Below, in pieces: positions 3,970 through 19,637 of a DNA stretch of 25,487 nucleotides (positions within the stretch are counted from its first letter, which is position 1; each line of letters opens with the position of its first letter). Made by a program: the position numbers and the translations under genes. Where the stretch lies: the IMG/VR virus record IMGVR_UViG_3300021960_000463, positions 1 to 25,487 of that record; one strand, written 5' to 3'. The notes beneath the pieces were generated by a model. It had not been told where the DNA came from, did not search any database, and was given only the letters and a program-made list of their open reading frames with translations. This DNA comes from a virus.

Positions 3970-5598
3970 TTATCTATCAAGTAATTGTTGCGTTTCTTGA
4001 AACCAAAGATAGTCCAAAGACGAATTATTTAGAGTATCAAGTGCGTCTTTTGGAGTTTCTACCAAAGGTTCTCCAGCTAAGTTGAAACTTGTATTTAAAA
4101 GTATACCATGTCCAGACAATTTTTTAAACTCTTGAAGAAGTTCATACAAATAACCATCGGACACAGTTTGAATTCTACAAGTATTATCTACATGAGTAAC
4201 TCCTGGTATTATATCAGATTTCACTGGAAAACACATAGTCATATAAGGACTCTTTTTGATCTTACCCATATCAAAGTAAATGTTTGCGTCCTCTTCCAAG
4301 ACTATGCAAGCAAATGGTCTATACCACTCCCTCTTCTTAATTCTATTTACAATCTCTTTTGCATCTACATTTAATGCATTGAATAATATAGAACGATTTC
4401 CTAAAGCTCTTTGTCCAGATTCAGCGAGTCCTTTATATACTGCAACTGACTTATTTTCATTCAATAAATTTGCAATTTCTTTTACAGAAGTACGAACACC
4501 TTTGTATGATGAAATATCGTAACGTGATCCATGAGTAAAAGTATCTTTGATGGGTTTTGGTACTTTATCTTCTAGTTGGATATATGCATTCATTGCAGCA
4601 CCAATACTTATACCATTATCATTACATAAAGGTTCAAAATAAAATTCTACGTCCGGGAATCTTTGCACATAATATTGATTTGCGACAACATTCATACCAT
4701 AACCACCAGAAATACATACTCTTTTTATTCCGGTCCTCTTTACGCAACCTTCTATTAGATCACCAACTGCCTTTTGTGTTTGTTGTTGAACCTCATAACA
4801 AAAATCTGCATGTAACTTATGGTTATCCTTTTTTATCTCTTTAACTGGGTTAGTCAAAAAGTTTTGAACTTGTCTAGAAGAATTTTTAAAAAAGTTATTG
4901 TTAAGGGTGTTCTTTTTTAGGAATAAATTTTTAAATAAATCATTCGAAGATCCATAAGAAGAGAGACCCATAGCCTTTCCACAATCGTGTGGGGTGTTTC
5001 CTATCAATATCGCTGCAATATCATAAACAGATCCTATACCAAAAATATTCTTACATTGACAATTTAGTACATTTTCTTCTGGATTATCATTTGTAGTCCA
5101 CATCTCCAAAAACTTTTGTTTATTAAATTCTGGAGGTAATACATCTTTTATTAAGTTTTTATGAAGTACAATTTTTTTTCTACCATAAAAATAAAAAATA
5201 CTTTCAACCTCTAGTAAATTGTCTTTTACTCTCGATCCTGCACCATCAACTACTACAACTAAACTATCATCAAACTTACTATTATAAAAAGCAAGAGAAG
5301 CATGATTTAGATGATGATCTTGTTGCAATATTAATTTTACTTTGGGATTATATTCCTTACATGTTTCGTATAATGTTGTTATTAGTTGATCTGGATAATT
5401 AAAATTGGATACGCAAATTGCATTCAATTTCCTTTTCAGTTTTGAAGCCATACCAGAAACCAAATCAAGTATAACCTTATCGTCATCATCATGTTTTTTT
5501 CTAGTGAATCTTTCTACTAGAAAATATTTTTTCAGATGACCATCTTCTAAAAGACAAATAGAAGCATCATGACACAAATGAACACTAAGTATTAACAT
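3970..5598 (-). CDS. Carbamoyltransferase, NodU/CmcH family
   Basis: This 542-residue protein has the full two-domain layout of NodU/CmcH/TobZ-type O-carbamoyltransferases. The N-terminal Kae1-like part has CHDASICLLEDG (residues 9-20), the metal-binding DHHLNHASLAFY (94-105), VVVVDGAGSR, and later the GGYGMNVVANQ and NDNGISIGAAMNAY segments. The C-terminal YrdC-like part shows GQRALGNRSILF, REWYRPFACIV and GILLNTSFNLAGEPLVETP. The family transfers a carbamoyl group from carbamoyl phosphate (through carbamoyl-AMP) to a hydroxyl of a sugar or antibiotic. Some phage members are reported to carbamoylate hydroxymethylated bases in DNA. Here the glycosyltransferase neighbours favour a sugar acceptor. 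It is the last gene of the glycan cluster and overlaps the GT25 gene by 7 bases. Confidence 0.93.
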   Translation of the reverse strand: MLILSVHLCHDASICLLEDGHLKKYFLVERFTRKKHDDDDKVILDLVSGMASKLKRKLNAICVSNFNYPDQLITTLYETCKEYNPKVKLILQQDHHLNHASLAFYNSKFDDSLVVVVDGAGSRVKDNLLEVESIFYFYGRKKIVLHKNLIKDVLPPEFNKQKFLEMWTTNDNPEENVLNCQCKNIFGIGSVYDIAAILIGNTPHDCGKAMGLSSYGSSNDLFKNLFLKKNTLNNNFFKNSSRQVQNFLTNPVKEIKKDNHKLHADFCYEVQQQTQKAVGDLIEGCVKRTGIKRVCISGGYGMNVVANQYYVQRFPDVEFYFEPLCNDNGISIGAAMNAYIQLEDKVPKPIKDTFTHGSRYDISSYKGVRTSVKEIANLLNENKSVAVYKGLAESGQRALGNRSILFNALNVDAKEIVNRIKKREWYRPFACIVLEEDANIYFDMGKIKKSPYMTMCFPVKSDIIPGVTHVDNTCRIQTVSDGYLYELLQEFKKLSGHGILLNTSFNLAGEPLVETPKDALDTLNNSSLDYLWFQETQQLLDR

Positions 5599-6452
5599 TT
5601 TTCTAAAAATTCCTCTATATCCTCTAATCTTACTCTTAGGGACATTTTATCATCATTTGGTTTTCCATAAGTGAAAAACTCTTCAAGTGAAAATTTATGA
5701 TGATATTTTCTCCACCACTGTGTAATTAATTTAGTACATATCATATCTATTGGAGACATCTTATGATTATTCTGTTCATTATCTCCACCAAGACGAACGT
5801 TTAAATTAAAAAGAGGAAGAGAGTATGTAATTCCAATATCGAATAATACATCATCTTGTATGATGTGTTTTTTACTATATCTTCTATGATAGGAGTTATC
5901 GCAGAATGTCAATCTATACTTACCATCCCGATATAACATGTCTTTTAACTTTTTTGCATACGAACGATTGATGAGATAAGCCGCAGCAGATCCAGCATTC
6001 GTTCTTTTATGTAAGAACATGGGGAAAGTCAACCCATCTGTTTGATATCTAGGACAATAATATAATTGAACACATTCCCAGTTTTCTGGCAGATTATTCT
6101 CAACGTAATCCCAATCAAAATTCCAATATTTTATATTATCCAAACAAAGGTCATCCTCCATGAGGATACATGTTTCTGATGGATGTTCATCATACCAATT
6201 TATCACTGTTTCGATATTGTTTATTGCAACCGACATCAAAGACAAACATTCAAGAATTCCGTCTTCGACTATCATATCTTTCCATTCATCATACTTTGAG
6301 ACATGATATTTTGATGCAGGAACCCGACGAAAATTGGTTATGCCCCAATAATCAAATTGATCTTCCATCCACCTTTTTCGATCAGTGCGATGATCTAGGT
6401 TTATGTAATAAACCAAAGGAAAATTTTTTAACTTATTTTCCAGATCCATCAT
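5592..6452 (-). CDS. GT25-like glycosyltransferase, copy 1 (type A)
   Basis: This 286-residue protein fits the LPS glycosyltransferase family 25 pattern. The opening strand VYYINLDHRTDRKRWMEDQF holds the donor-binding 'INLD.R.DR' motif, and the acidic EDD of CILMEDDLCLD (about residue 97) is the likely metal-nucleotide site. LINRSYAKKL and a C-terminal SLEEFFTYGKPND follow. It is of the same type as the copy at 9323-10147 (shared SETC..EDDLC, YWNFDW and NWECVQL), but its last 15 residues match the copy at 8485-9348. It starts with an ATGA overlap behind the amidinotransferase. The acceptor may be a glycan or, as in some GT25 proteins, a hydroxylated amino acid. Confidence 0.85.
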   Translation of the reverse strand: MMDLENKLKNFPLVYYINLDHRTDRKRWMEDQFDYWGITNFRRVPASKYHVSKYDEWKDMIVEDGILECLSLMSVAINNIETVINWYDEHPSETCILMEDDLCLDNIKYWNFDWDYVENNLPENWECVQLYYCPRYQTDGLTFPMFLHKRTNAGSAAAYLINRSYAKKLKDMLYRDGKYRLTFCDNSYHRRYSKKHIIQDDVLFDIGITYSLPLFNLNVRLGGDNEQNNHKMSPIDMICTKLITQWWRKYHHKFSLEEFFTYGKPNDDKMSLRVRLEDIEEFLEKC

Positions 6453-7411
6453 TCTCTTTCAAGATCCAAAGTGACACAATGGAAAATACCACTCAGAGTT
6501 CTACCATGTCTCATAGGAAGCATTGCACACTCAATACCGTGTTTTTCCAGTTCTTTCCTAGTTGGTTCCTGATGTTCTTCTAAAGCAACTAAATTTGGGT
6601 TGACACTGAAAAGGTTCATATTCACCCATTCCGAAGCATGATTATATCCAGGATAATATCCAATATCTACTGGTTCTGGACACCACACTACATCCCACTT
6701 TCTAAAAGGTTCTGGTAAAACATCGACAGACTTGATTCTCTCAGGATTTAACAACATTAGTCCTTCACGGAGAAATGCAATCGTCGTATCTATATGCATG
6801 TAACTATAGACACCTTGAAGAAGATGCACTTTTGCACGGTCTTTGAGCATTTCTTGCAGTAAATTAGCTCCTGCAACATTTCCACTATTAGAGACAAGAT
6901 ACAAGATGTCGTCATTTGCACGAAGTACGTTGGCTGCATCAAAAGCAGGAGTAACTTCAGTAAGTGCAAGAGTGTCTTTATCGCCTACACACTCCTCATT
7001 ATACAGTCCCTCAACGTCCTTACAGGGAACAATAATCGTAGAGTCTAGTCTATCTATAATGGGTCGCCAGGCGTCTCTCCGACACTTTAGAGGCATCGGT
7101 GTAGCTACTGTTAGATCCTTATGTGTGAAAATAACGTCTCTTGGGCAGAAATTATAATAATCCGTGGGAGTTCTCTTTGGACGCACAACCTCTACATTTT
7201 CCCCAAGAAGAAAACTCACAAATTTTTCCAGATCTTCGTTGGCTTCGTCTATTACTTGTTTGGGGTATGGTCCAACAGGAACGTCTGAAACGTCTTTCCT
7301 GTCAGCATAGTTAATTGTGCGAACACTCAAGTCTACTTCAGGAACTGTTGCATAGTCCGCAACTCCCACTACTACTTTTTTTAATTTATCCCATTCATTC
7401 TGACTTTTCAT
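6449..7411 (-). CDS. Amidinotransferase (glycine/inosamine amidinotransferase family)
   Basis: This 320-residue protein contains every catalytic element of the amidinotransferase family: the Arg-Asp pair in CPRDVIF (Asp 92), the second Asp in PAFDAANV (158), the His in YMHIDTT (206) and the nucleophilic Cys in GIFHCVTLDLERE (312). These correspond to Asp170, Asp254, His303 and Cys407 of human glycine amidinotransferase. Members move an amidino group from arginine to an amine, giving guanidino compounds such as guanidinoacetate or N-amidino-scyllo-inosamine. It is shorter than the vertebrate enzyme and closer to the bacterial size. It is coupled by ATGA overlaps to a 2OG oxygenase upstream and a GT25 gene downstream. 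An amino sugar made by the nearby aminotransferase is a natural acceptor candidate (inference). Confidence 0.92.
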   Translation of the reverse strand: MKSQNEWDKLKKVVVGVADYATVPEVDLSVRTINYADRKDVSDVPVGPYPKQVIDEANEDLEKFVSFLLGENVEVVRPKRTPTDYYNFCPRDVIFTHKDLTVATPMPLKCRRDAWRPIIDRLDSTIIVPCKDVEGLYNEECVGDKDTLALTEVTPAFDAANVLRANDDILYLVSNSGNVAGANLLQEMLKDRAKVHLLQGVYSYMHIDTTIAFLREGLMLLNPERIKSVDVLPEPFRKWDVVWCPEPVDIGYYPGYNHASEWVNMNLFSVNPNLVALEEHQEPTRKELEKHGIECAMLPMRHGRTLSGIFHCVTLDLERE

Positions 7412-7908
7412 CGCACAATACCAGTAATTTGAACCGCATATCTATCAGTCATACTAAAATTATAAAAAGCGTGTTCATCATCATATCTCCAGTAAAAACA
7501 TTCACCAGCATTCCATTTACAATATGCAGTATCTTTAACCTGTAGGATTTGTCCAGGAGAACTATCCTCCAACATTACCATACACCTTATAACTTTCTTA
7601 GAATCGACTTTATTTAATTCTATGTACTTTCCATACAAATCGGTGTGAAGTGGCAAATACTGTCCAGGTTTAAAATAATTAACGGCAGCAGCAACGTTGT
7701 CCAAATCTGAGAAATGAGGAATAATATAATTTTCCACACAATTAGGCATAGGATTTGGCATCTGATATTTGTAAATAGACAGTTTCTGTTTACTGTGACC
7801 AGAATGCAAATATTTTCTTACTAGTTCCTCATCCTTATGTGTAGATAGAATATAGTCGAGACCATGAAATTCTCTTATGTCCCAATTTGGTCTTATGTGC
7901 GTGATCAT
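7408..7908 (-). CDS. 2OG-Fe(II) oxygenase-like protein (HTD type)
   Basis: I choose the ATG at 7908, which overlaps the previous stop as ATGA, giving 166 residues. An earlier ATG at 7956 would overlap the aminotransferase by 52 bases. The metal motif appears as YLPLHTDLYGKY (HxD), and the distal His and 2-oxoglutarate Arg in EHAFYNFSMTDRYAVQITG. The strand between (GQILQVKDTAYCKWNAGECFYW) fits the core jelly roll. The shape resembles aspartyl/asparaginyl-hydroxylase-like or small phage hydroxylases. It lies between the aminotransferase and amidinotransferase genes in the glycan cluster, so it may hydroxylate a cluster product or a fibre residue. Confidence 0.75.
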   Translation of the reverse strand: MITHIRPNWDIREFHGLDYILSTHKDEELVRKYLHSGHSKQKLSIYKYQMPNPMPNCVENYIIPHFSDLDNVAAAVNYFKPGQYLPLHTDLYGKYIELNKVDSKKVIRCMVMLEDSSPGQILQVKDTAYCKWNAGECFYWRYDDEHAFYNFSMTDRYAVQITGIVR

Positions 7909-8492
7909 TTGAATACAGACATCTCCTTTAACTCTGGGTAATCCCTGGCCGTCCATTTTTTTGCCGGAGATTTTTTTCGACTTTTTAGTAGCTCAATACC
8001 GATTTTCGCCACCTCTGGTGTCATGTAGTAATGATAACCGATACTAGTTATGTCTTGTTCAGCCCATGGACGAGAAAGATCACGACCATCATAAGACATC
8101 TTCTTTAACGCATCACGATCATCCTTATTTTGCAGGAGAATCATTCCACCACGACCAAGGTTCAAATGTTTCTTGAATTGAAAACTAAGACACATGAAGG
8201 TATTTGGAAGATATGAACCTTCTTCCCAAAGAACTGCAGCATCAATAATTGTACTGTTTCCGAGATGATAATAGTCAGACCACTCATCTTCTTTCCATTC
8301 CCAATTTAAACCAAGTTTCATACACGTCATTGGAACTGAAATATACGTTCTTGTTGGGATGGTAATATTATTATATCCAGTATATCTCAAACACAGTTCG
8401 ATAGCATGAGTACAACAGTCAGTAGCAACTGCATACGGAGAACCGAAGAACTCAGCAATTTGTGACTCAAATTCAGTAACGTACTCAAACAT
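7905..8492 (-). CDS. Short DegT/DnrJ/EryC1/StrS-type aminotransferase
   Basis: The ATG at 8492 gives 195 residues; a TTG at 8513 is the only longer choice. PLP-fold signatures of the sugar aminotransferase family are present: FFGSPYAVATDCCTHAIEL (N-terminal phosphate-binding region), IPTRTYISV, the Asp of STIIDAAVLW (Asp 84) that contacts the pyridine nitrogen, and the lysine of LSFQFKKHLNLGRGGM (Lys 108). YHYYMTPEVAKIGIELLKSR matches the 'NYRMTeiqAAiGl.QL..l..' segment. Full-length members have about 370 residues. This one stops right after that segment and so lacks the C-terminal domain. It may still make an amino sugar, need a partner, or be a remnant. The frame shows no internal damage. 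Confidence 0.85.
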   Translation of the reverse strand: MFEYVTEFESQIAEFFGSPYAVATDCCTHAIELCLRYTGYNNITIPTRTYISVPMTCMKLGLNWEWKEDEWSDYYHLGNSTIIDAAVLWEEGSYLPNTFMCLSFQFKKHLNLGRGGMILLQNKDDRDALKKMSYDGRDLSRPWAEQDITSIGYHYYMTPEVAKIGIELLKSRKKSPAKKWTARDYPELKEMSVFK

Positions 8493-9348
8493 CTTCCAGT
8501 TCCCTCGGAACAATTATTCTATCATTTGGTTTACCATAAGTAAAGAACTCTTCTAGAGTGTAATCATCTCTTAGTTCTGTCCACCACTTCATACAAGCTT
8601 TATAAGAAAACTCCAGGTCAACTCTTTCTTTTTTTCTATCAATATTTTGAGCCCAACTTCCGAGATTTTGATTGACAGAAATTAAGGGCATACAATAAGT
8701 CTTTCCGTTGTGACCAAGAAAATAATCTGTAGTGAAGTTGGGCATATTCAACCCAGCATAAGACCACTTATAATTGGAATGTTTTTGGGAAAGATCAAAC
8801 TTACCATCCTTGTAGTGGAGACTTATAATCTTCTCCGCATACCTTCTATTGATTAATGAAGCACCAGTATCATGACCGGATAAGATTGGATGTAGGAAAC
8901 ATGGCATGAGTTTTTCATTTTCAAAACTCATTTGAATACAATCCCAATCATAAGGAATATTATTCATCAAATATTCCCAATCAAAATGCCAGTATTCAAT
9001 GAAACTGAGATCGTAATCATCCTCCATGATGATTACATAAGGATCATTCGTAGTCTCTAACCAGTTTTTGATGTTTACTAAGTGAGCAAGAGTTATAGAC
9101 AGTTCTGCAATGTGCCAATTTTTTCTCTTGTATCCTTCTGGAAAAGGATTCAAAATAACTAAGTCTTTCCAATAGTCTTCATAAGTAGAGAGTTGATACT
9201 TTGACCCAGAGACCACAGTGTAGTCTTTGATTCCCCAATAATCATACTGAGTCTCAGCATATTCTCTTTTATCTGGCCTTTCATCAATGGTCGCAAGAAT
9301 GATTGGAGGAAGTCCTTTGAGTTTATTTTTTAGATTCATGAGTGACAT
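8485..9348 (-). CDS. GT25-like glycosyltransferase, copy 2 (type B)
   Basis: The product is 287 residues with the GT25 layout, but its first motif is altered: ILATIDERPDKREY replaces the usual YYLNLD.R.DR. The acidic site is intact (VIIMEDDYDLSFIEYWHFDW), followed by IPYDWDCIQMSF and LINRRYAEKI. These features pair it with the copy at 10131-10943. Its C-terminus TLEEFFTYGKPNDR instead matches the type A copy at 5592-6452, at the DNA level too, suggesting exchange between copies. Two in-frame ATG codons (9348 and 9339) could start it. The altered first strand might change donor use. Confidence 0.83.
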   Translation of the reverse strand: MSLMNLKNKLKGLPPIILATIDERPDKREYAETQYDYWGIKDYTVVSGSKYQLSTYEDYWKDLVILNPFPEGYKRKNWHIAELSITLAHLVNIKNWLETTNDPYVIIMEDDYDLSFIEYWHFDWEYLMNNIPYDWDCIQMSFENEKLMPCFLHPILSGHDTGASLINRRYAEKIISLHYKDGKFDLSQKHSNYKWSYAGLNMPNFTTDYFLGHNGKTYCMPLISVNQNLGSWAQNIDRKKERVDLEFSYKACMKWWTELRDDYTLEEFFTYGKPNDRIIVPRELEDV

Positions 9349-10147
9349 CCAGAATTAATTTCTTTCTCTTAGAGGAATTCAAGTAAAAGAGATCGTCCAA
9401 AGTATATTGTGAGGATTTTGTTTTCCACCAATCTAGAACCAATTTATCACAAGTTCTTGACATGACATTTACATTACCATTCCTAAGGCCATCACTTATG
9501 AAGTTGTAATTAGTAGTAAGTGTTGGAATTGAATAAGTCACTCCTATCTGATAGAGAACAAAGTCTACAGACTGATAGTGATACTCTGGCCAATTTTCAT
9601 TATATCCATAATTAGAATATAATTTGAATTTATTATCTATGTAATGAAGTTTGATTAGTTTTTCTGCATATGACCTATTGATCAGTACACATCCTGTAGA
9701 GTGATTATTATGTGTCCACTTGGAAAGATTCATCTTAATGAAGTTCTCACCAATAATGTGTAGCTGAACGCACTCCCAGTTGCAAGGTAAACTATCAACT
9801 AAAGTTTTCCAGTCAAAGTTCCAATACTCAACGGCATCAAAACACAAATCATCTTCGACTATCAGACAAGTCTCAGACTCATTGGAATTATACCAATCAA
9901 TTATACCATGAATCCTATCAACTAAAGTGGCAAGAAACCATACCTCAGTGCGAAGTCTATCTGTTATGACTCTTGACCTCCATTCTTCATAATTATCTAC
10001 AGAATATCTCGAAGAGTTAACTCTATGATAATTAGTTATCCCATAGTCAGAGAATTGTTTCTCTATATGTTCTCTCCGATCTATTCTGTTATCTAGATTA
10101 AAATAATATATTGGCGGAAGACCAACCAACTTAGTCTTCGTCATCAT
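9323..10147 (-). CDS. GT25-like glycosyltransferase, copy 3 (type A)
   Basis: This 274-residue GT25-like protein has YYFNLDNRIDRREH as the nucleotide-sugar strand and CLIVEDDLCFDAVEYWNFDW as the acidic site. NWECVQL and LINRSYAEKLIKLHY follow. It is closest in the window to the copy at 5592-6452. The C-terminus differs (TLDDLFYLNSSKRKK instead of the FFTYGKPND ending) and ends in a basic tail. It overlaps its neighbours on both sides by 17-26 bases, showing tight translational coupling. Substrate unknown. Confidence 0.84.
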   Translation of the reverse strand: MMTKTKLVGLPPIYYFNLDNRIDRREHIEKQFSDYGITNYHRVNSSRYSVDNYEEWRSRVITDRLRTEVWFLATLVDRIHGIIDWYNSNESETCLIVEDDLCFDAVEYWNFDWKTLVDSLPCNWECVQLHIIGENFIKMNLSKWTHNNHSTGCVLINRSYAEKLIKLHYIDNKFKLYSNYGYNENWPEYHYQSVDFVLYQIGVTYSIPTLTTNYNFISDGLRNGNVNVMSRTCDKLVLDWWKTKSSQYTLDDLFYLNSSKRKKLILDVTHESKK

Positions 10148-10943
10148 GATATGTTTTTACACGTTCTATCATTTTATAATCGTGTTCTTTACTATAAGAA
10201 AAGAAATCATCCAAAGTAAAATTATCTCTCTTGTTCTGCCACCAATCATAGTAGATATCTCTACAGAGAAAATGATGTTTCTTAGGTACTTTGTCTAGAT
10301 AAGGATTCTGAGTTATCAAAGGTATTTGATATGTTTTACCAAGAAAAGGAATATGTTCATCCAGTGAGACGACACGATATCCAGTGTCAAATGGATGAGG
10401 ACCATACTTTCTAATCAACATGTACTTGTCTTTAACATAGTGCAGATTGATCAACTTCTGAGCAAAATGTCTATTGATTAATATTGGCCCGTATCCAGTC
10501 CACCTATCTTTCGGGGACAAAAAGAACATAAGATAATGTTGAGATTCGAATCCTAATTGAACGCAATCCCAATCGTATGGGATTCTTTTCATCAGATATT
10601 CCCAGTCAAAGTGCCAATACTCTATCAGATTTAAATCGTAATCATCCTCAAAAAGGATCAGATGTTTTTCATCGGTAGTATCAAGCCAATGTTTAATGAT
10701 CTCAAGAGTAGACAGAGTGATTGCAGATATCAATCTCTGACCTCTTCTATTAATAGCTTGTGGAAAATGCAACTTGTCTTTCCAACTATCATAGTCATCA
10801 ACAAGGTACTTTGATCCGGAGAATCTTTTTACATTTGTAAGATTCCACTTATCAAATTGTTTTTCCATATATCTTCTTCTATCTACTTCTGAATCTAGAT
10901 TTAGATAGTAAATGCTTGGAATTCCCTTGAGTTTATCAGACAT
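10131..10943 (-). CDS. GT25-like glycosyltransferase, copy 4 (type B)
   Basis: This 270-residue protein starts with GIPSIYYLNLDSEVDRRRY and carries LILFEDDYDLNLIEYWHFDW at the metal site. IPYDWDCVQLGF and LINRHFAQKLINLHY follow. It matches copy 2 (8485-9348) over the EDDYDL to DWDC stretch almost residue for residue. The end reads TLDDFFSYSKEHD, then an acidic HDDED tail. It is the first GT25 gene of the run and starts within the last codons of the two-domain oxygenase gene. Confidence 0.84.
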   Translation of the reverse strand: MSDKLKGIPSIYYLNLDSEVDRRRYMEKQFDKWNLTNVKRFSGSKYLVDDYDSWKDKLHFPQAINRRGQRLISAITLSTLEIIKHWLDTTDEKHLILFEDDYDLNLIEYWHFDWEYLMKRIPYDWDCVQLGFESQHYLMFFLSPKDRWTGYGPILINRHFAQKLINLHYVKDKYMLIRKYGPHPFDTGYRVVSLDEHIPFLGKTYQIPLITQNPYLDKVPKKHHFLCRDIYYDWWQNKRDNFTLDDFFSYSKEHDYKMIERVKTYHDDED

Positions 10944-12123
10944 ACCAGGTGATAATAGAATAACGAGTTCCAGAAGTTACTGGTAAAATTTCATGAGGGA
11001 ACATAAAGTTTGAGGGGAACATCACGATAGATCCTTTACCACCTCTTATCATAATTTCTCTATCAAAAAATGCAAATTCACCACCCTCATAGTCATCATT
11101 GAGTAGGAAAGAACAACTTACAGATCTCTGTTGGGCTTTGAAAGAGTCGGTATGTTGAATATAAAATTGACCAGTTCTATATCTCAAAAGATCATATCCG
11201 GTGTCACTTTCCGAAGCAACTTCAGGAAATAATTTCCTATATTCATTTATTGCATTTGAAGCACAAATATAGAAATCATTATCTAATTGTCTTCTCACTT
11301 CTGGGTTCTGTTCGACTACCACTTCTTGTGAAATATTAACAATATCGCAATTTCTGATTTCGCTATTGGTATCACCATAACCTATGCTAGTAGGAGTCCA
11401 AAAAGAACACTCACGATATTCTTCTAGTATTCTATCACAGAGTTCTTCTGGAACAACATTTTCCAATGTGAAAATGTAATCTTCTAAACTTTTTTTACCA
11501 TTTGCAGAAGAAACTATTCTTTCTGGTTCTTTTTCTTCAGATACGGGTTCTTCCACAACTGATTTTTTTTCCTCTGGTTTAGTATTTTCTTGAAGTTTAT
11601 CGAAGTATGCATAAGAACAGTCTCCACGACTCCTAACGTAATGTAGGAATACCTGAGTGTAATATTCTCCACCATACTCTTCTCTCCAATGTGGGGCTTT
11701 CTTTCCCAGATAAACCATAGCTTCTCCAGGATTAAGATCCACCTTAACCTCTTCACCAGATGGAGTCTCGATCCATATTGGCCAAGTTTGGTCACCATGA
11801 AGATGGAGAGTCAGTGAAATTTCACAAGCATCCCTATCCGTATGTCTCGTTAAAACACTACCATTTTTATAAATTCTAGCGTAACTATAGGTAGGCAATA
11901 CAGTTTCACCAATTGCCTTGGAAACTTCTGGAGTCTTTTCGCAAAGCAATTCTAGAAAAGGAGTATAGTTATAAGTAGAAAAAGAGTTTGGAGCCTGAGG
12001 ATCTCCATCTATATTATTTTCCTTACAGTATTTTGTAAATTCAAAAGAAAGTTTTGAAGCCCTATCTTTTGAAATAAAGTCGTGAAGAATAATGTAGTTA
12101 TTGTCTTCTAAAGTTTTTTTCAT
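10936..12123 (-). CDS. Two-domain 2OG-Fe(II) oxygenase / prolyl-4-hydroxylase-like
   Basis: From the ATG at 12123 (a TTG at 12129 is less likely) the protein has 395 residues and two oxygenase domains. Domain 1 (about 1-175) shows RHTDRDACEISLTLHL (His94, Asp96) and APHWREEYGGEYYTQVFLHYV (His145). An acidic, Lys/Glu-rich linker follows (about 180-212). Domain 2 (213-395) is P4H-like, with QFYIQHTDSFK (His324, Asp326), MFPHEILPVTSGTRYSIITW (His377, Arg387) and SFLLNDDYEGGEFAF. The family uses 2-oxoglutarate and O2 to hydroxylate proline, lysine or sugars. Since some GT25 enzymes glycosylate hydroxylysine, a hydroxylate-then-glycosylate pathway on a protein is conceivable (inference). Confidence 0.87.
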   Translation of the reverse strand: MKKTLEDNNYIILHDFISKDRASKLSFEFTKYCKENNIDGDPQAPNSFSTYNYTPFLELLCEKTPEVSKAIGETVLPTYSYARIYKNGSVLTRHTDRDACEISLTLHLHGDQTWPIWIETPSGEEVKVDLNPGEAMVYLGKKAPHWREEYGGEYYTQVFLHYVRSRGDCSYAYFDKLQENTKPEEKKSVVEEPVSEEKEPERIVSSANGKKSLEDYIFTLENVVPEELCDRILEEYRECSFWTPTSIGYGDTNSEIRNCDIVNISQEVVVEQNPEVRRQLDNDFYICASNAINEYRKLFPEVASESDTGYDLLRYRTGQFYIQHTDSFKAQQRSVSCSFLLNDDYEGGEFAFFDREIMIRGGKGSIVMFPSNFMFPHEILPVTSGTRYSIITWYV

Positions 12124-12138
12124 AATCAAAAATCAGGT

Positions 12139-13532: not shown

Positions 13533-13540
13533 TATTTATC
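13533..13540 (-). promoter_or_regulatory. Late promoter octamer GATAAATA
   Basis: On the minus strand this reads GATAAATA, matching the NATAAATA late motif. It lies 35 bases before the ATG of fibre copy 1 and overlaps the last codons of fibre copy 2. The position is typical for a T4-like late gene. Confidence 0.7.
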
Positions 13541-14105
13541 CATTGAAACTACAGACAAGAACATCCATATATTGAACACCCAAAGAAAAAGTTACACTTA
13601 TAGCTTTAGTTATACTAAGTGGATGGGTGTGATTTGTTGCTGGTGAAGCAGCGTTTCCTGTGACGGGTGAGGGAACATTTCTGGTCCATCCACCGGCTCT
13701 TCTAAGATCCCCACCATTCCATCCAGTAAACTGGCCAGCGGGATTGTACAGTGCTGGAACGGCAGCAACTACAAATCTACCAGGTTGTGGGTGTACGTGA
13801 GCGGGAAGATTTGGTGCAGTGAGTGGAGCCCCACCAGTGGCATTAGTTGTCTGAAGATTTCCAGCATATGCGAATGTTGGACTTAAAACTGTTGTGAATG
13901 GTTGAGTTCCGCCAGAACCACCACCACTAGTTCCACTTACAACTCTTAAAGCTTTATTGTTATGAGTAGTTTGTTTTGTCCATCCAGTTGGAGCAGCTGC
14001 TTGGAAAAACAGCATATCAGTTCCAGTAGGAATAATACCTCTTTTTGAATTTAGCGAAGTACCATCACTAAAATTTATTCCAGTTGATGTTAGTTTTGCT
14101 GCCAT
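13536..14105 (-). CDS. Tail-fibre/collar-type protein, copy 2 (HxH)
   Basis: This 189-residue paralogue of the downstream fibre gene has the same order of parts: 'SGINFSDGTSLNSKRG' opening, LFFQAAAPTGWTK, KALRVVSGT, a Gly-rich linker, LPAHVHPQP (about residue 100), NHTHPLS (about residue 163) and the ending VQYMDVLVCSFNG. The middle, between the two HxH sites, differs most in sequence and length, as expected for a receptor-binding loop region. It has its own late promoter (TATAAATA) and no clear Shine-Dalgarno sequence. It probably forms a metal-binding trimer on the tail or capsid. Confidence 0.85.
   Translation of the reverse strand: MAAKLTSTGINFSDGTSLNSKRGIIPTGTDMLFFQAAAPTGWTKQTTHNNKALRVVSGTSGGGSGGTQPFTTVLSPTFAYAGNLQTTNATGGAPLTAPNLPAHVHPQPGRFVVAAVPALYNPAGQFTGWNGGDLRRAGGWTRNVPSPVTGNAASPATNHTHPLSITKAISVTFSLGVQYMDVLVCSFNG
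13978..14009. repeat. 32-base direct repeat, copy in fibre 2
   Basis: Identical to 13374-13405, 604 bases away, in the same position of the paralogous gene. Confidence 0.8.
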
Positions 14106-14346: not shown

Positions 14347-14557
14347 CCCATTCAGTCCTAAACTTTTCAGCAATAATATCTATACGAGCATCAAGAGAGT
14401 TCCAACACTCATATAGTGCGTTAGATTGTGCCACATTTTCTTCCTCAAGAACTCGAACACGATCTTCTAGTTCTTGAATTTTTTTCTCTAGAACTTCAAT
14501 AGGAGTGGGTTCATTGATTCCCCACTTCTGAAAAAACCAATAAGGATTTTCTTTCAT
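14339..14557 (-). CDS. Small coiled-coil protein, 72 aa
   Basis: After a Trp/Phe-rich start (MKENPYWFFQKWGINE) the protein forms a clear heptad coiled coil (VLEKKIQELEDRVRVLEEEN and on to about residue 65). It probably oligomerises. It is coupled to its neighbours by an ATGA-type overlap at its start and an 8-base overlap at its end. No enzyme motif. Confidence 0.7.
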   Translation of the reverse strand: MKENPYWFFQKWGINEPTPIEVLEKKIQELEDRVRVLEEENVAQSNALYECWNSLDARIDIIAEKFRTEWDV

Positions 14558-14754
14558 AATACATTCACTGACTTCAAGTAATTTCTATAAGCCATAAATC
14601 TGCGGAGAGAAGGTTGTCCTGGAATAGGCCCTAGACTTTCGCAGATTTCACAGTAACATATCCAATCATGCCACGGAGTCGTCGGATCCAGTGCTGGATG
14701 TGTAGTCTGTTGTGTGTAGTTTTTCAAGGAGTCGAACAAGTTCTGGAGTTTCAT
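14554..14754 (-). CDS. Small hypothetical protein, or C-terminal half of a split gene
   Basis: An ATG at 14754 gives 66 residues ending with a compact, conserved-looking part: TTPWHDWICYCEICESLG and GQPSLRRFMAYRNYLKSV. The frame stays open back to a TTG at 14844, but that TTG lies in the -10 box of a promoter and cannot be in the transcript. The N-terminal 20 residues overlap the 50-residue gene in another frame. A single +1 shift would join that gene's WEWDETPELVRLLEKL part to this DWICYCEIC part into one protein of roughly 90 residues. It may therefore be a separate overlapping gene or the rear half of one gene. Confidence 0.6.
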   Translation of the reverse strand: MKLQNLFDSLKNYTQQTTHPALDPTTPWHDWICYCEICESLGPIPGQPSLRRFMAYRNYLKSVNVL

Positions 14755-14818
14755 CCCATTCCCATACCTGATTGTGTGTTGGATCTTTCTTTTCAAGAGT
14801 AAAAGTTCTTTTAGCCAT
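14666..14818 (-). CDS. Small hypothetical protein, or N-terminal half of a split gene
   Basis: The ATG at 14818 lies about 20 bases after the expected transcription start of a strong sigma70-like promoter. It opens 50 residues (MAKRTFTLEKKDPTHNQVWE, then WDETPELVRLLEKLHTT). That opening resembles a family I recall from cyanophages. The last 15 residues (DYTSSTGSDDSVA) look like out-of-frame read-through rather than protein. With the neighbouring frame this suggests a frameshift near 14690-14720, real or from sequencing. If intact, it is a small soluble acidic protein of unknown role. Confidence 0.6.
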   Translation of the reverse strand: MAKRTFTLEKKDPTHNQVWEWDETPELVRLLEKLHTTDYTSSTGSDDSVA

Positions 14819-14843
14819 AGTTCAATTCTATAAATCCATTCCA

Positions 14844-14872
14844 AGTATACTATGTATTTCAGTTTTTATCAA
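14844..14872 (-). promoter_or_regulatory. Sigma70-like promoter TTGATA-17-TATACT
   Basis: The -35 TTGATA (14867-14872) and -10 TATACT (14844-14849) are spaced by 17 bases. The -35 overlaps the stop codon of the radical SAM gene. It would start transcription near 14837, just ahead of the ATG at 14818. Confidence 0.7.
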
Positions 14873-16110
14873 GTCTTTGGTCTGACTTTAATAACATCCC
14901 AAATTCTTTGGAACTCTGGAAAGGTTTCAATAACATTCTCATTCCGTATCTTATCAAACCTTCTCATTGAATCTAAGAACTGAGGTAAAAGTTTTTGTTC
15001 TTGATACAGATCAATGTAAGTAAGAAGACTTTCATAAAAAACAATAGACCTCTTTGCCTTATTGGGAATTAAAAATTCTTTGATGTGTCTTCTTATATTT
15101 TCTTTTGCGGCTTCTTTTGTTTTTTTATCCAAAATCCAAACTGTTTGTTCTCTAGGAGTTTGCATGAAATTCAGGAAGAAGAAGTCAACATTCTTCATCA
15201 GTCCACTATTATAAAGGTATTGATGTAAGTCAGTTACTTCAAAAATATTCAGAGCTTGGACTGTGCAATCAAAATGAAGTTCATGAGTACGTTCTTTATG
15301 TTTGAATCTTTCTCTGAATTGTTCGGCATGAGAAACAAATCGGTCCCAATTGAATCCCTTTCGGATCAGTTCGCCCTTCTTACCCATACCGTCCACGCTG
15401 ATGTGGACTTGCAACTCTCTATTGAAGTTGTCCCACAGATCAAAGATATGTCTACCTTTATAAACAAGGTTACTGAAGTTACTGTTGTATGCTAGGACAA
15501 CATCATTGTTTCGTTTCAACTCAATGAGTTTGTCCATGATCTTCCAGTGTTCATCAATGATTAAGGACTCTCCACCAGAAAAATATAGACTATTAACCAT
15601 TCCAAGATAAGGTTCTACCTGTTCATAAGTCTTCTCAGCAGCATCCCACTTACCAGAAATCTTACCAAACTGTTCGAGTTCCCAACTAGAACTCGATGTC
15701 CAGTGACACATCCTACACTTGAAGTTACACTTACTACTTAACTTCAAGTCCCACCAGATAAACCCAGGTTCATTTACCGAAAAGTCATCGTTAGTTTCAT
15801 AGACAAACTTCTTATACAGATGAAATAGATCCCTGTTGAAATCCTGTCTGAGAGAACTCTTCCCTGCGGCTTGATTATTATAACAAACCTCACAACTCTT
15901 ATGAGGTGTTCCGTTTATCATACTCTCTCGGAATTTTTTGATGGGTTCATCATTCCAAATTTCCCAAAGAGATTTTTCTTTCACATGACCATATGTGTAC
16001 TCAGAAATACAACATGGTTTTACTTCACCATCCTGTCTAACATCCAGACACATCCAAGGAGCAACACAGAATACATCGTTATTCAAATCAATCTTCTTCT
16101 TATCGATCAT
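14869..16110 (-). CDS. Radical SAM protein with N-terminal twitch/SPASM-like domain, copy B
   Basis: From the ATG at 16110 (GTG at 16113 possible) the protein has 413 residues. The radical SAM cluster motif CxxxCxxC is in SSKCNFKCRMCHW (Cys 128, 132, 135), and YFSGGES (about 176-182) is the SAM-binding GGE. Ahead of it is a Cys-rich domain: CVAPWMCLDVRQDGEVKPCC (Cys 15, 21, 33, 34) and CEVC (73, 76), followed by SSLRQDFN. These are the hallmarks of an auxiliary Fe-S 'twitch/SPASM' module, here before rather than after the barrel. It overlaps its paralogue upstream. The substrate is unknown; related enzymes modify peptides or small molecules. Confidence 0.9.
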   Translation of the reverse strand: MIDKKKIDLNNDVFCVAPWMCLDVRQDGEVKPCCISEYTYGHVKEKSLWEIWNDEPIKKFRESMINGTPHKSCEVCYNNQAAGKSSLRQDFNRDLFHLYKKFVYETNDDFSVNEPGFIWWDLKLSSKCNFKCRMCHWTSSSSWELEQFGKISGKWDAAEKTYEQVEPYLGMVNSLYFSGGESLIIDEHWKIMDKLIELKRNNDVVLAYNSNFSNLVYKGRHIFDLWDNFNRELQVHISVDGMGKKGELIRKGFNWDRFVSHAEQFRERFKHKERTHELHFDCTVQALNIFEVTDLHQYLYNSGLMKNVDFFFLNFMQTPREQTVWILDKKTKEAAKENIRRHIKEFLIPNKAKRSIVFYESLLTYIDLYQEQKLLPQFLDSMRRFDKIRNENVIETFPEFQRIWDVIKVRPKT

Positions 16111-17389
16111 CACTCCAAATCCTCTCTAATTCTGGGAACACTTCTCTTGAGTTTTCATTCCTCAATACATCTAATGCAGACATGTATGATTTAAACTCTG
16201 GAATCAGGTGTTCTTTTCTCTCAGTAGAAAGCAATTTAAGAATAGACATGTATTGATTAATAGAAGCCTGGGCTTTTGCAGGAACAAGATAATTTTTAAT
16301 ATGATATTTAATTTTTTCTCCCAATAATTTTCTCGATTCCGAATCAAGAATCAAAACAGAAAGCATGTCTGGATTATGTAGAGTACATAACTCAAAATCA
16401 TCCCAATCAGTAATTATACCCCTAAGATAAAGTTCTTTTTGAGCATCCATGACATGGAAACAATTCAAAGCTTGTATCACAAAATTAATCTTTATCCTTT
16501 TGTTGGGAAATTTATTCCTAAACATTTTAAAGTTATCTAAAAACTTTTGCCAATCAAATCCTTTACGAATTATTTCTCCCCTTCTCTCCGTTCCATCAAA
16601 ACTTACTGAAATATTAAGCTTTGGAAATTGTTTCCAGAGGTGAAGAACATCATTGTCTTTATATTTCAAGGTACTAAAATTAGTGTTATAACAAATATCA
16701 ACTTTTTTATTTCTACCCTTCTCAATAAGTTTATTTAAAATTTTATAGTGGTGATCTGAAATTAAAGGTTCGCCGCCAGCAAAATATACATTCTCAACAA
16801 TATCATATAGAGGTTCAATATCTTCATGAACCATATCCACATCAATCTTTGGATACTCTCCTTCGATATTAAATTTCTTCCTCATTTCCTGATCCCAAGA
16901 ACTACTGTAACCAGGTCCACACATCCTACACCTAAAATTACAGACGTTATTTAATCTAAAATCCCAATAAACAAGATTGAACCTTTCGAAAGTTCCATCT
17001 TCCTTAGTCTCTTCGACATACTTATGGTGATCTATCCAAAACGAATTAAAGTCTTGTCTTGAAGAAATTTTTCCAATCTCTTCCTCTTTATAACATGAAG
17101 TACAGTAACTACACTCCTTACCCTCGATCATGTTTCTACGAAGTTCTCGCATTTTTTCATTGTTCCAAATTTCTTTAAGAGATGAATCTCTTAAAGAACC
17201 CATTCTGAAGTCTCTAGGATCTCCACTACATTCGGTAGAAACAATTTCCAAAGGTGACATCTCATTGTTTTCCTCTGGTTCTGGTTCGGACAAAGGCATC
17301 AAACAACATGGATAAACATCACCATTCGGTGCAATGTTCATATGAACCCATGGGGCCATGCAAAAAGTATTATTATTAGGTATAGTCAT
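16100..17389 (-). CDS. Radical SAM protein with N-terminal twitch/SPASM-like domain, copy A
   Basis: This 429-residue paralogue of the next gene has the same layout: CMAPWVHMNIAPNGDVYPCC at residues 10-29, a loop insert of about 30 residues (PEPEENNEMSPLEIVSTECS), then CSYCTSC (93-99), SSRQDF, the radical SAM CxxxCxxC in NNVCNFRCRMCG (150, 154, 157) and VYFAGGEPLI. Each copy conserves C-terminal INQYMSILKLL / VFYESLLTYID and FPELERIW / FPEFQRIW segments. It is tied to the DUF6356-like gene by an ATGA overlap and a strong GGAGG. Two different but related enzymes in a row suggest sequential or heterodimeric action. Confidence 0.9.
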   Translation of the reverse strand: MTIPNNNTFCMAPWVHMNIAPNGDVYPCCLMPLSEPEPEENNEMSPLEIVSTECSGDPRDFRMGSLRDSSLKEIWNNEKMRELRRNMIEGKECSYCTSCYKEEEIGKISSRQDFNSFWIDHHKYVEETKEDGTFERFNLVYWDFRLNNVCNFRCRMCGPGYSSSWDQEMRKKFNIEGEYPKIDVDMVHEDIEPLYDIVENVYFAGGEPLISDHHYKILNKLIEKGRNKKVDICYNTNFSTLKYKDNDVLHLWKQFPKLNISVSFDGTERRGEIIRKGFDWQKFLDNFKMFRNKFPNKRIKINFVIQALNCFHVMDAQKELYLRGIITDWDDFELCTLHNPDMLSVLILDSESRKLLGEKIKYHIKNYLVPAKAQASINQYMSILKLLSTERKEHLIPEFKSYMSALDVLRNENSREVFPELERIWSDDR

Positions 17390-17649
17390 TTGTTCCCCTC
17401 CTTCTTGGAGATATAGTCGGCATAGTCTTTATTAGGATGATCAACTAACCGTTCGTGATAAAAGTCAATGACTGTTTTAGCCGCAGTTCCTTGAAAGAAT
17501 GCTGGGATTATTCCATGTATTATACTAGAAACTCCAACAACAATCATCTTTGCACCAGCATAAGTGGCCCAAAATAAATGTCTAGTATAAGTTTCTTTAC
17601 TGGACTCTAAGTGTTTAGAACTTTCTTTTAGTAAATTTAATTTAGTCAT
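17386..17649 (-). CDS. DUF6356-like small membrane protein
   Basis: I use the ATG at 17649, which overlaps the ligase stop; a TTG at 17670 is the only longer choice. The 87 residues include KHLESSKETYTRHLFWATYAG (in two parts), the membrane region AKMIVVGVSSIIHGIIPAFF and GTAAKTVIDFYHERL. The 'H...Y..H...A...G..l...g..a.iHg..P..f...as' pattern matches DUF6356, a small bacterial membrane family of unknown function. Sitting between the AMP ligase and the radical SAM genes, it may anchor a modification complex or insert its product into the membrane (inference). Confidence 0.75.
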   Translation of the reverse strand: MTKLNLLKESSKHLESSKETYTRHLFWATYAGAKMIVVGVSSIIHGIIPAFFQGTAAKTVIDFYHERLVDHPNKDYADYISKKEGNK

Positions 17650-19156
17650 CTTGATATTCAAATCCTTCAAATATTTTTAGGTATTCATTCTTGTGTTCAA
17701 AAATAAAATCCGTTGTTCTGGATTTGGTTTCAACCTTAGATCTAAAGTAATCTCTAATTAATTGATTATCTAGTTTGATCCCGGTAAAAAACAAATTTGA
17801 ATCTAGAATTTCATACTTACTAATATGATGTCCCCAGTATATAGTCCCAATTTTAGCATTGATTTTTTCAACTAAAACATCTGGGTCTAAGTCAGTCTTC
17901 CATATCGCCAAATATATTTCATTTACTGCAGGATCATATACAAACTTTGCATCCAAGTATGGTTTGAGAACTTCTAATATTTTGTTATGAGTTTTTATGT
18001 CTACACTTTGTCCATTTATTCTAATAAGATCCGATCTACCATTGTGATAAAAACCCTCGGACTTAATTTCAAACTCATCATTCGTGCAAACTTTATAGTT
18101 ATACGTTGGTACATTAACTTCCAAAAGATTCTTATCTGTAAAAGAAATCTTATAGTAATCATCGAGAGGAGTAAATTTATTCTGAACAAAGTTTTCGTCA
18201 CTAGCATAGTTCAGAAATATTGGCCCACTAGTCTCAGAACTACCAAAGATACTCACAATATCTTTTATCTTTCCCTCTCTGACATAAGGTATCCACTCCT
18301 TCCTTATAGTGGATAGAGTATAGATTGTGGTTCTGGATGGCGGATCCTCATGATTGATATTGTCTAGGTAACCGTCGATATCATGGGTATATGCAATCAT
18401 GATGTGATCAAAAATATTTTCATTCCTCATGAAATATTTCTCATCATTAAATTCAGACCCATCTCCCCAGTAATTATAGATGTTTTTTACATCCTTAGAC
18501 ATCAAAGTTGGAATGAAATAAGTTGCTGGCCCACTACCATGACCTAAACACTTTTCATTTACAACATTCCCATAGAACATCTTAGAATTTCTTTGACACA
18601 AGTCATATAAGAATTCATGACTGTGTTCTATAATTTTTGGTGTTCCCGTAGTACCACTTGAAGTACATCTCATTGCAATTGACTTTGGATCAATCTGCAC
18701 TTCGCAATCAAGATACTTATTGGGTTGATGATAAACAATATCCTTATGATATATTGTATTCAAACAATGTTTGATAAGGATAGAGTATTTACTATTCGGT
18801 TGTTCCTCTAAAACATTATCTGGTTCGCAAATAAAATAATGTATAGGAGACAGTAATTGAGTTTTGGTAGCAGACTCTGGAGATACAACAGTCATACTAT
18901 AATCAATTATTGAAATTGATAGTCCCAACTCCAGACAAGCAAAGACACTTGCCATTTTATAAAGACAAGTGCCTGAGTATCCTATTAGAACTGTTTCTCC
19001 TTTTGTTATCTTATAGTTAGAAAGAAAGTAGTTTTTGATTTTATCTACTGTTCTTTCAAATTGTTTATATGAATACTTTACAAGACGGCCTTCTTGTGTA
19101 ATATCATAGAATGATATATCTTTATTAATAACGTTTCTATCAACTACCTTACTCAT
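17642..19156 (-). CDS. AMP-forming acyl/aryl-CoA synthetase-type ligase
   Basis: This 504-residue protein is an ANL-superfamily adenylating enzyme. It has the phosphate-binding loop TSSGTTGTPK (165-174), FGSSETSGP (304-312, the A5 motif), the hinge motif YHNGRSDLIRI (370-380) and a C-terminal catalytic-lysine region FTGIKLDNQ (Lys about 460). The family activates a carboxylate with ATP to an acyl-adenylate and passes it to CoA, a carrier protein or another nucleophile. No carrier-protein gene is visible nearby. It starts with an ATGA overlap behind a small membrane protein gene and begins the accessory cassette. Such a ligase is unusual in a cyanophage. Acyl, aryl or amino acid substrates are all possible. 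Confidence 0.9.
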   Translation of the reverse strand: MSKVVDRNVINKDISFYDITQEGRLVKYSYKQFERTVDKIKNYFLSNYKITKGETVLIGYSGTCLYKMASVFACLELGLSISIIDYSMTVVSPESATKTQLLSPIHYFICEPDNVLEEQPNSKYSILIKHCLNTIYHKDIVYHQPNKYLDCEVQIDPKSIAMRCTSSGTTGTPKIIEHSHEFLYDLCQRNSKMFYGNVVNEKCLGHGSGPATYFIPTLMSKDVKNIYNYWGDGSEFNDEKYFMRNENIFDHIMIAYTHDIDGYLDNINHEDPPSRTTIYTLSTIRKEWIPYVREGKIKDIVSIFGSSETSGPIFLNYASDENFVQNKFTPLDDYYKISFTDKNLLEVNVPTYNYKVCTNDEFEIKSEGFYHNGRSDLIRINGQSVDIKTHNKILEVLKPYLDAKFVYDPAVNEIYLAIWKTDLDPDVLVEKINAKIGTIYWGHHISKYEILDSNLFFTGIKLDNQLIRDYFRSKVETKSRTTDFIFEHKNEYLKIFEGFEYQDD

Positions 19157-19365
19157 ATAGATGAATTCATAAGTTCAATCTTTATTACTGGTTTATCATT
19201 CCAATGTCTTACTGCATTGGAAACAATAGCCACATTGGTAACCAAGTAAGAAATAAAAATAAGGGTGCGTATGCCAGCAATAATATCTGCTTCTCTATCA
19301 TTCTTTCCTTCCTTTGCTCCTAGTGCTTTTGCCCAAATTCTCCAGGCACTTTTTCTCTTACTCAT
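19153..19365 (-). CDS. Small membrane protein, 70 aa
   Basis: The ATG at 19365 forms a TAATG overlap with the previous stop. The 70-residue protein opens with a basic stretch (MSKRKSAWRIWAKALGAKEG) and has one membrane segment (about IRTLIFISYLVTNVAIVSNAV, residues 34-54). The opening resembles a small protein I know from several T4-like cyanophages. It probably spans the inner membrane once with its basic end inside. No function known. Confidence 0.75.
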   Translation of the reverse strand: MSKRKSAWRIWAKALGAKEGKNDREADIIAGIRTLIFISYLVTNVAIVSNAVRHWNDKPVIKIELMNSSI

Positions 19366-19637
19366 TAATATCTTTCTGGTATCTCGTTGTAACATTCGTC
19401 GGAGTATTTAGATGCTCTAGTCTTCACATACTCCAGTTCTTTCCAGTTTTCTGGATAACAAACAACGAGGCAATGAGTTTTTTCATGAAGAGAACAATGT
19501 TTAATGTTCTCATCATCTTTACACTTGACACCTATTTCAATAGTAATGTAAGAATCATCAACAAAATATACCCATCCCTCTAGATCTCTGGGTATGGTGT
19601 GCCAAATTACATAGTCATTGACCTTGGGTTTATACAT
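19365..19637 (-). CDS. Conserved cyanophage-type protein, SH3-like, 90 aa
   Basis: The opening MYKPKVNDYVIWHT, followed by DLEGWVYFVDDSYITIEIGVK, gives the pattern of a small beta-barrel (SH3/KOW-like) with a short Cys/His region after it (CKDDENIKHCSLHEKTHC). Proteins with this start are recurrent in cyanophage small-gene runs. A protein- or nucleic-acid-binding role is possible. It overlaps the next gene by one base at its stop. Confidence 0.75.
   Translation of the reverse strand: MYKPKVNDYVIWHTIPRDLEGWVYFVDDSYITIEIGVKCKDDENIKHCSLHEKTHCLVVCYPENWKELEYVKTRASKYSDECYNEIPERY

What the first reader, a model, noticed from the sequence alone, without database searches (positions are those of the whole stretch)
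14869..19156. AMP ligase, DUF6356 membrane protein and twin radical SAM enzymes in one coupled phage cassette
Four genes in a row overlap each other (ATGA or a few bases) and sit between runs of ordinary small cyanophage genes, as an acquired module would. The order is ligase (activates a carboxylate), membrane protein, radical SAM copy A, radical SAM copy B. I know phage radical SAM proteins with a twitch domain, but I do not recall this combination with an adenylating ligase and a DUF6356-like protein. It could be a pathway that makes and attaches a modified acyl, aryl or aminoacyl group, possibly at the membrane. Product and target are unknown.
Basis: partly seen in the sequence, partly recalled or inferred. 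Interest (0 to 1): 0.78.

Follow-up and report, generated by a model that had tools for sequence, protein, structure and literature searches.

The report
Swappable cyanophage acyl-ligase and radical-SAM cassette
Uncultured cyanophages carry a four-gene cassette that plugs into a fixed spot next to presumed tail genes: an acid-activating enzyme almost always paired with a small protein of unknown function, plus two radical enzymes; gene neighbours suggest it adds an unusual chemical group to surface sugars, but this is untested.

Summary
On the minus strand, an ANL adenylating ligase (17642-19156), a DUF6356 protein (17386-17670) and two N-twitch radical SAM enzymes (16100-17389, 14869-16113) overlap end to start and are under strong purifying selection. 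They are not one indivisible pathway. (1) Ligase+DUF6356 is a robust pair: 27 of 42 non-redundant ligases have DUF6356 nearby (26 adjacent; 27 of 30 in the core clade), in both gene orders; all 13 loci found with DUF6356 alone carried the ligase. (2) The radical SAM pair is a separate unit whose upstream partner is swapped between ligase+DUF6356 and a different 5-7-gene module (at least 4 changes on the tree). The cassette occupies a site that is 141-183 bp wide in close cassette-free relatives. The ligase has the ANL fold and every catalytic residue checked. Elsewhere ligase+DUF6356 abuts cupin, sugar-nucleotide dehydratase and DegT aminotransferase genes, or an amidinotransferase. Best reading: the ligase activates an organic acid that is put on an (amino)sugar of host or virion glycan, with radical SAM tailoring; a functional parallel is RfbL of O-antigen synthesis. 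Substrate, acceptor and DUF6356's role remain inferred. No cultured phage with it was found. New combination; moderate interest.

The parts
17642..19156 (-). ANL-family adenylating (AMP-forming) ligase, 504 aa
   Evidence: PF00501 over cut-off; AF2 model pLDDT 77.8 matches Acs, EntE, MenE over full length, E about 1e-16 to 1e-18; A3 G168/G171/K174, A4 H206, A7 D360, A10 K461 invariant in 20 aligned ANL proteins including E. coli EntE, MenE, FadD, Acs; A5 E308 and A8 R374 nearly invariant
17386..17670 (-). DUF6356 protein, 94 aa from TTG or 87 aa from ATG at 17649; one hydrophobic stretch at residues 32-60
   Evidence: PF19883 52.6 bits vs 24.4; conserved H, E, Y, R, N residues; hydropathy maximum 1.77 in 19-residue windows
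16100..17389 (-). N-twitch radical SAM enzyme B (rB), 429 aa
   Evidence: N_Twi_rSAM 362.9 bits vs 170; invariant CX3CX2C at C150/C154/C157 and N-terminal cysteines C10/C28/C29/C96/C99; AF2 model pLDDT 87 matches SkfB, BlsE, viperin, SuiB
14869..16113 (-). N-twitch radical SAM enzyme A (rA), 414 aa
   Evidence: N_Twi_rSAM 325.6 bits vs 170; same cysteine set; 39% identical to rB
19153..19395 (-). fixed left flank of the insertion site (80-aa ORF, u80)
   Evidence: also present next to the empty site in relatives
14554..14844 (-). fixed right flank of the insertion site (96-aa ORF, u96)
   Evidence: gap u80-u96 is 141-183 bp in close cassette-free relatives and 4.5 kb in L002 with the cassette
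13536..14105 (-). small presumed tail/virion gene (189 aa) downstream of the site; no family hit
   Evidence: syntenic in nearly all relatives; no Pfam or PHROG hit; in cultured S-SCSM1 tail-fibre genes lie upstream of the OXY397 homologue
3970..12129 (-). downstream glycan-type cluster: 2OG oxygenase fusion, glycosyltransferases, short DegT, hydroxylase-like, StrB1-like amidinotransferase, carbamoyltransferase; context, not part of the cassette
   Evidence: largely the same cluster in cultured Synechococcus phage S-SCSM2R, which gave no match to the ligase, DUF6356 or rB

Best explanation
The block is an accessory cassette made of two separable units inserted at a fixed site in the structural/glycan region of a cyanophage. 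The ligase activates a small carboxylic acid as an acyl-AMP (catalytic residues shown, substrate unknown). With its near-obligate partner DUF6356 it delivers the acyl group to an amino or hydroxyl group of a sugar in a surface glycan, either host lipopolysaccharide/O-antigen or virion glycan (inferred). The rA/rB pair carries out a radical oxidation, dehydration or epimerisation on the same sugar or acyl group before or after transfer (inferred), and can also work with a different module. The likely benefit is a changed cell surface (superinfection exclusion) or changed virion adsorption.
For: Ligase fold and catalytic residues. Ligase-DUF6356 pairing across ligases only about 31-38% identical, in both gene orders (reciprocal search). 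In the cupin group DUF6356-ligase is followed by cupin and sugar-nucleotide dehydratase, and in the longer contigs by an epimerase and a DegT aminotransferase (11 loci; Pfam 239.8 and 219.7 bits). In another group the neighbours are amidinotransferase, hydroxylase-like, UDP-sugar dehydrogenase-like and epimerase genes. The cassette's own site lies upstream of glycosyltransferase, carbamoyltransferase and amidinotransferase genes, and in another lineage the same site holds genes resembling KdsA/KdsB by sequence motif. A known parallel: RfbL, an ANL ligase in an O-antigen cluster (PMC12208996). Host-recognition clusters of marine myophages hold tail fibres, glycosyltransferases and rSAM cassettes (PMC7029224).
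Against: No acyltransferase or acyl carrier protein was found in or beside the cassette, so the transfer step has no identified enzyme unless DUF6356 does it. The downstream glycosyltransferase cluster is also present in relatives that lack the cassette, so it does not depend on it. No substrate can be read from the sequence. SPASM-type rSAMs often act on peptides (own knowledge).
Confidence: 0.45

Rival explanations
1. Protein or peptide modification: the two SPASM/twitch rSAMs modify a virion protein such as a tail fibre, and the ligase attaches an acyl or aminoacyl group to it.
For: SPASM domain in both rSAMs; nearest folds of rB include SkfB and SuiB peptide maturases; cassettes sit beside presumed tail genes, and at the alternative location beside a tail-fibre-family gene (L009).
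Against: No cassette-specific small precursor ORF: the empty site keeps u80 and u96, so the cassette is just these four genes. The sugar-nucleotide neighbourhoods of ligase-DUF6356 are not explained. Fold matches are weak (TM about 0.37).
Confidence: 0.2
2. Auxiliary metabolism: the ligase is a CoA ligase feeding host or phage metabolism during infection, with rSAMs making a cofactor or metabolite.
For: Fold matches include acyl-CoA synthetases; cyanophages are rich in metabolic genes (PMC3037559); a transaldolase-like gene adjoins the pair in one group.
Against: Constant adjacency to DUF6356, swapping against an unrelated module, and position in structural/glycan regions do not fit core metabolism. 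The ligase clade lacks the canonical A6 GYW/GYY segment seen in the aligned EntE, MenE and FadD.
Confidence: 0.13
3. Nucleotide or nucleic-acid chemistry (viperin-like chain terminators or hypermodified DNA).
For: rB has weak matches to viperin models (42.4 bits PADLOC, 49 bits NCBIfam); glycosyltransferases and carbamoyltransferases also occur in DNA-hypermodifying phages (own knowledge).
Against: Far below the viperin cut-off (49 vs 180 bits) while well above N_Twi_rSAM's; viperins lack the N-terminal twitch domain (own knowledge); no kinase or hydroxymethylation gene beside the cassette.
Confidence: 0.06
4. The grouping is chance.
For: The four genes separate into two units in several phages.
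Against: 27 of 42 ligases with DUF6356 nearby, 13 of 13 reciprocal, recurrent four-gene order in at least two genomic contexts.
Confidence: 0.02

Closest known systems
RfbL (WbeL), the O-antigen acid-activating ligase of Vibrio cholerae O1 (PMC12208996)
   Same: ANL ligase encoded within a surface-polysaccharide gene set and thought to activate a hydroxy acid for the polysaccharide
   Different: RfbL has a carrier protein candidate, RfbK; here no carrier was found and the constant partner is DUF6356; sequence relation to RfbL itself was not tested
N_Twi_rSAM, NF033640 (twitch domain-containing radical SAM protein)
   Same: both rSAMs are members well above cut-off, with N-terminal twitch/SPASM cysteines and CX3CX2C
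   Different: I know of no assigned reaction for the family; here it occurs as a fixed pair with an exchangeable upstream partner module
BtrN (butirosin 2-deoxy-scyllo-inosamine dehydrogenase)
   Same: twitch-type rSAM; the rSAM profile's N-terminal cysteine domain matches BtrN's C-terminal auxiliary-cluster domain, E about 1e-5
   Different: domain order is permuted; only the cluster-binding part matches; substrate unknown
Pelagimyophage host recognition cluster with radical SAM gene cassettes (PMC7029224)
   Same: variable structural-region island with tail fibres, glycosyltransferases and added rSAM gene cassettes
   Different: the passages read do not describe the ligase-DUF6356 pair, the swapping or the empty site; phage lineage differs
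DUF6356 (PF19883)
   Same: member above cut-off
   Different: family of unknown function; the only paper found mentions it once; here it gains a recurrent partner

Membership tests
ANL adenylating enzymes (PF00501) | Pfam AMP-binding match over curated cut-off | tested here: met
   44 bits vs 29.9
ANL adenylating enzymes (PF00501) | full ANL fold with N- and C-terminal domains | tested here: met
   model pLDDT 77.8; Foldseek hits to Acs, EntE, MenE over the full length, E about 1e-16 or better
ANL adenylating enzymes (PF00501) | catalytic motifs A3, A5 Glu, A7 Asp, A8 Arg, A10 Lys | tested here: met
   K174, D360, K461 invariant and E308, R374 nearly invariant in 20 sequences including four E. 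coli ANL enzymes
CoA ligases | A6 GYW/GYY segment and CoA thioesterification | tested here: inconclusive
   A6 segment is absent across the phage clade; activity cannot be tested here
N_Twi_rSAM (NF033640) | score above curated cut-off with CX3CX2C and N-terminal cysteines | tested here: met
   362.9 and 325.6 bits vs 170; invariant cysteines
Viperin (pVip) | score above curated cut-off | tested here: not met
   rB scores 49 bits vs 180 in NCBIfam
DUF6356 (PF19883) | score above curated cut-off | tested here: met
   52.6 bits vs 24.4
O-antigen acid ligase plus carrier systems (RfbL/RfbK-like) | cognate acyl carrier protein nearby | tested here: not met
   no PP-binding domain in the neighbouring window ORFs that were scanned
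RiPP rSAM maturase system | cassette-specific precursor peptide ORF | tested here: not met
   the cassette between u80 and u96 holds only the four genes
D-alanylation (Dlt) system | MBOAT DltB and carrier DltC with the ligase | tested here: not met
   no such domain among the cassette genes or the neighbouring window proteins scanned

The most novel reading that the evidence does not exclude
DUF6356 is the acyl acceptor or transferase that replaces a carrier protein. Together with a phage-specific ANL ligase clade it forms a minimal two-gene acylation system that phages plug into different glycan-modifying sets, here coupled to a pair of radical SAM enzymes with unprecedented chemistry on surface sugars.
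Probability: 0.25. Interest if true: 0.75.

Novelty: new variant of a known kind. Interest (0 to 1): 0.55.

Why it matters
It gives DUF6356, a family with almost no literature, a concrete and testable partner. It shows a phage ligase clade for which no relative was found among 50,697 phage records or in a pattern scan of a species-level genome collection (limited sensitivity). And it provides a natural experiment: close relatives with the cassette, with a different module, or with an empty site. If the glycan reading is right, cyanophages remodel host or virion sugars with radical and adenylate chemistry, which bears on receptor switching and superinfection exclusion in the ocean.

Tried and rejected
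Cultured phages: no tblastn match for ligase (window and L101 versions) or DUF6356; rB matches only two Vibrio phages at 25%. Cellular relatives: two genome contigs pattern scans found no relative of ligase or DUF6356; these patterns reach only fairly similar proteins, so absence from cells is not shown, and DUF6356 itself does occur in Caulobacter. Viperin, RiPP and Dlt memberships tested and rejected. Promoter and terminator scans uninformative (18 promoter-like sites vs 27.5 expected). Composition does not mark the cassette as foreign. The rSAM tree does not follow module type (6 changes each for modules A and B), which argues against a single fixed four-gene pathway. Sequence searches of the sulfotransferase-like, SGNH-like and ferritin-like genes of the other modules against Pfam/PDB were weak or negative, so those names rest on motif reading only.

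Full report
Check of the observation. The four ORFs exist at the stated coordinates on the minus strand and overlap end to start. Profile matches confirm ligase, DUF6356 and two SPASM/Radical_SAM proteins, and both rSAMs are members of N_Twi_rSAM. The window is a 25,487-base virus record. Its nearest cultured kin are Synechococcus phages, above all S-SCSM2R.

Selection and function. Against relatives at about 70-85% protein identity, dN is 0.10-0.21 while dS is near 1 or saturated for all four genes. The ligase keeps the A3, A4, A5, A7, A8 and A10 residues of ANL enzymes when aligned with E. coli EntE, MenE, FadD and Acs, and its model matches full-length ANL structures. Its clade lacks the A6 GYW/GYY segment. 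Both rSAMs keep CX3CX2C and the N-terminal cluster cysteines. The rSAM profile matches viperin over its core and BtrN over its auxiliary-cluster domain. The rB model matches SkfB, BlsE, viperin and SuiB only weakly. So all four look functional, but no reaction can be read off.

Two units, not one. Searches of viral contigs with three of the four genes and gene-order maps show that ligase and DUF6356 form a tight pair. Of 42 non-redundant ligases with sequence on both sides, 26 have DUF6356 next door and 27 within six genes. Among the 30 that score at least 300 bits the figure is 27, and in one of the other three (L113) a 105-aa ORF in the DUF6356 position resembles it by eye. The pair occurs in both orders. 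Searching with DUF6356 alone gave 13 loci, all with the ligase. The rSAM pair is a second unit. Upstream of it stands either ligase+DUF6356, sometimes with an SGNH-like and a sulfotransferase-like gene, or a wholly different module (P-loop, ferritin-like and small hydrophobic proteins), or a DUF6065-like gene. On a tree of 32 rows (31 rB proteins and an rA outgroup) the module type changes at least six times for each of modules A and B, and starred branches force at least four.

Insertion site. In close relatives without the cassette, u80 and u96 are 141-183 bp apart; in L002, with it, the gap is 4.5 kb. Ten distinct empty sites (flank genes differ in some), three distinct ligase+DUF6356+rB+rA sites, three distinct other-module sites, and one site with ligase+DUF6356 only (L015) were resolved. 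One 138.5-kb contig has this site empty and carries the cassette elsewhere, beside a tail-fibre-family gene (L146 and L009). The cassette is therefore an optional, mobile addition. GC content gives no sign of recent foreign origin.

What it probably does. Three neighbourhoods of ligase+DUF6356 point to sugars. In the cupin group it is followed by a cupin and a sugar-nucleotide dehydratase, with an epimerase and a DegT aminotransferase in the longer contigs. In the amidinotransferase group it sits with a homologue of the window's own StrB1-like amidinotransferase, a hydroxylase-like gene, and in L101 UDP-sugar dehydrogenase-like and epimerase genes. In the window it lies upstream of glycosyltransferase, short DegT, amidinotransferase and carbamoyltransferase genes. 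RfbL offers a precedent for an ANL ligase in an O-antigen cluster (PMC12208996). I therefore favour acylation of a surface or virion glycan, with radical SAM tailoring, at 0.45. Shown: fold, catalytic residues, pairing, swapping, mobile site. Inferred: acid substrate, sugar acceptor, role of DUF6356, rSAM reaction, benefit. The first rival is modification of a virion protein.

Novelty. rSAM cassettes in host-recognition regions are known (PMC7029224), N_Twi_rSAM is a named family, and acid ligases in O-antigen clusters are known. New here are the ligase-DUF6356 partnership, a ligase clade not found in cultured phages or in the genome-collection pattern scan (limited sensitivity), and the exchange of whole modules in front of one rSAM pair. 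I did not find the combination described in the papers searched, a library that lacks most subscription journals.

Noticed in passing
window 6449-7411: A StrB1-like inosamine-phosphate amidinotransferase (197 bits to 1BWD), in a cluster with glycosyltransferases, a short DegT, hydroxylase-like and carbamoyltransferase genes, reminiscent of aminoglycoside-type sugar decoration; much of the same cluster, annotated, is in cultured S-SCSM2R.
   Followed up: partly
window 7905-8513: A half-length DegT-type aminotransferase (202 aa) whose short length is shared by relatives (about 195 aa in S-SCSM2R), so probably not a broken gene.
   Followed up: partly
window 10936-12129: Fusion of an N-terminal domain that PHROGs calls ferrochelatase with a C-terminal 2OG-Fe(II) oxygenase, syntenic across the lineage.
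   Followed up: no
L062:2320-6992: Alternative module in front of the rSAM pair: P-loop proteins, a ferritin-like protein, a small hydrophobic protein, two GPQGSGNH-motif proteins of 206 and 215 aa; functions unresolved.
   Followed up: partly
L211:3203-8664: In another cyanophage lineage the same site holds genes that look like KdsB and KdsA (by motif), an amidinotransferase-like gene, another rSAM and a cupin.
   Followed up: partly
L066, L067, L071, L075, L076, L082: Phage contigs with arrays of several N-twitch rSAM genes, plus other rSAMs and SGNH-like genes.
   Followed up: no
L140:1489-1680: A second DUF6356 copy in the L103 contig, without a ligase beside it; DUF6356 also occurs in Caulobacter, so its role is not limited to this ligase.
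   Followed up: partly
L125:6365-10276: Two ligase paralogues in one phage, separated by one gene that reads like a periplasmic solute-binding protein.
   Followed up: no
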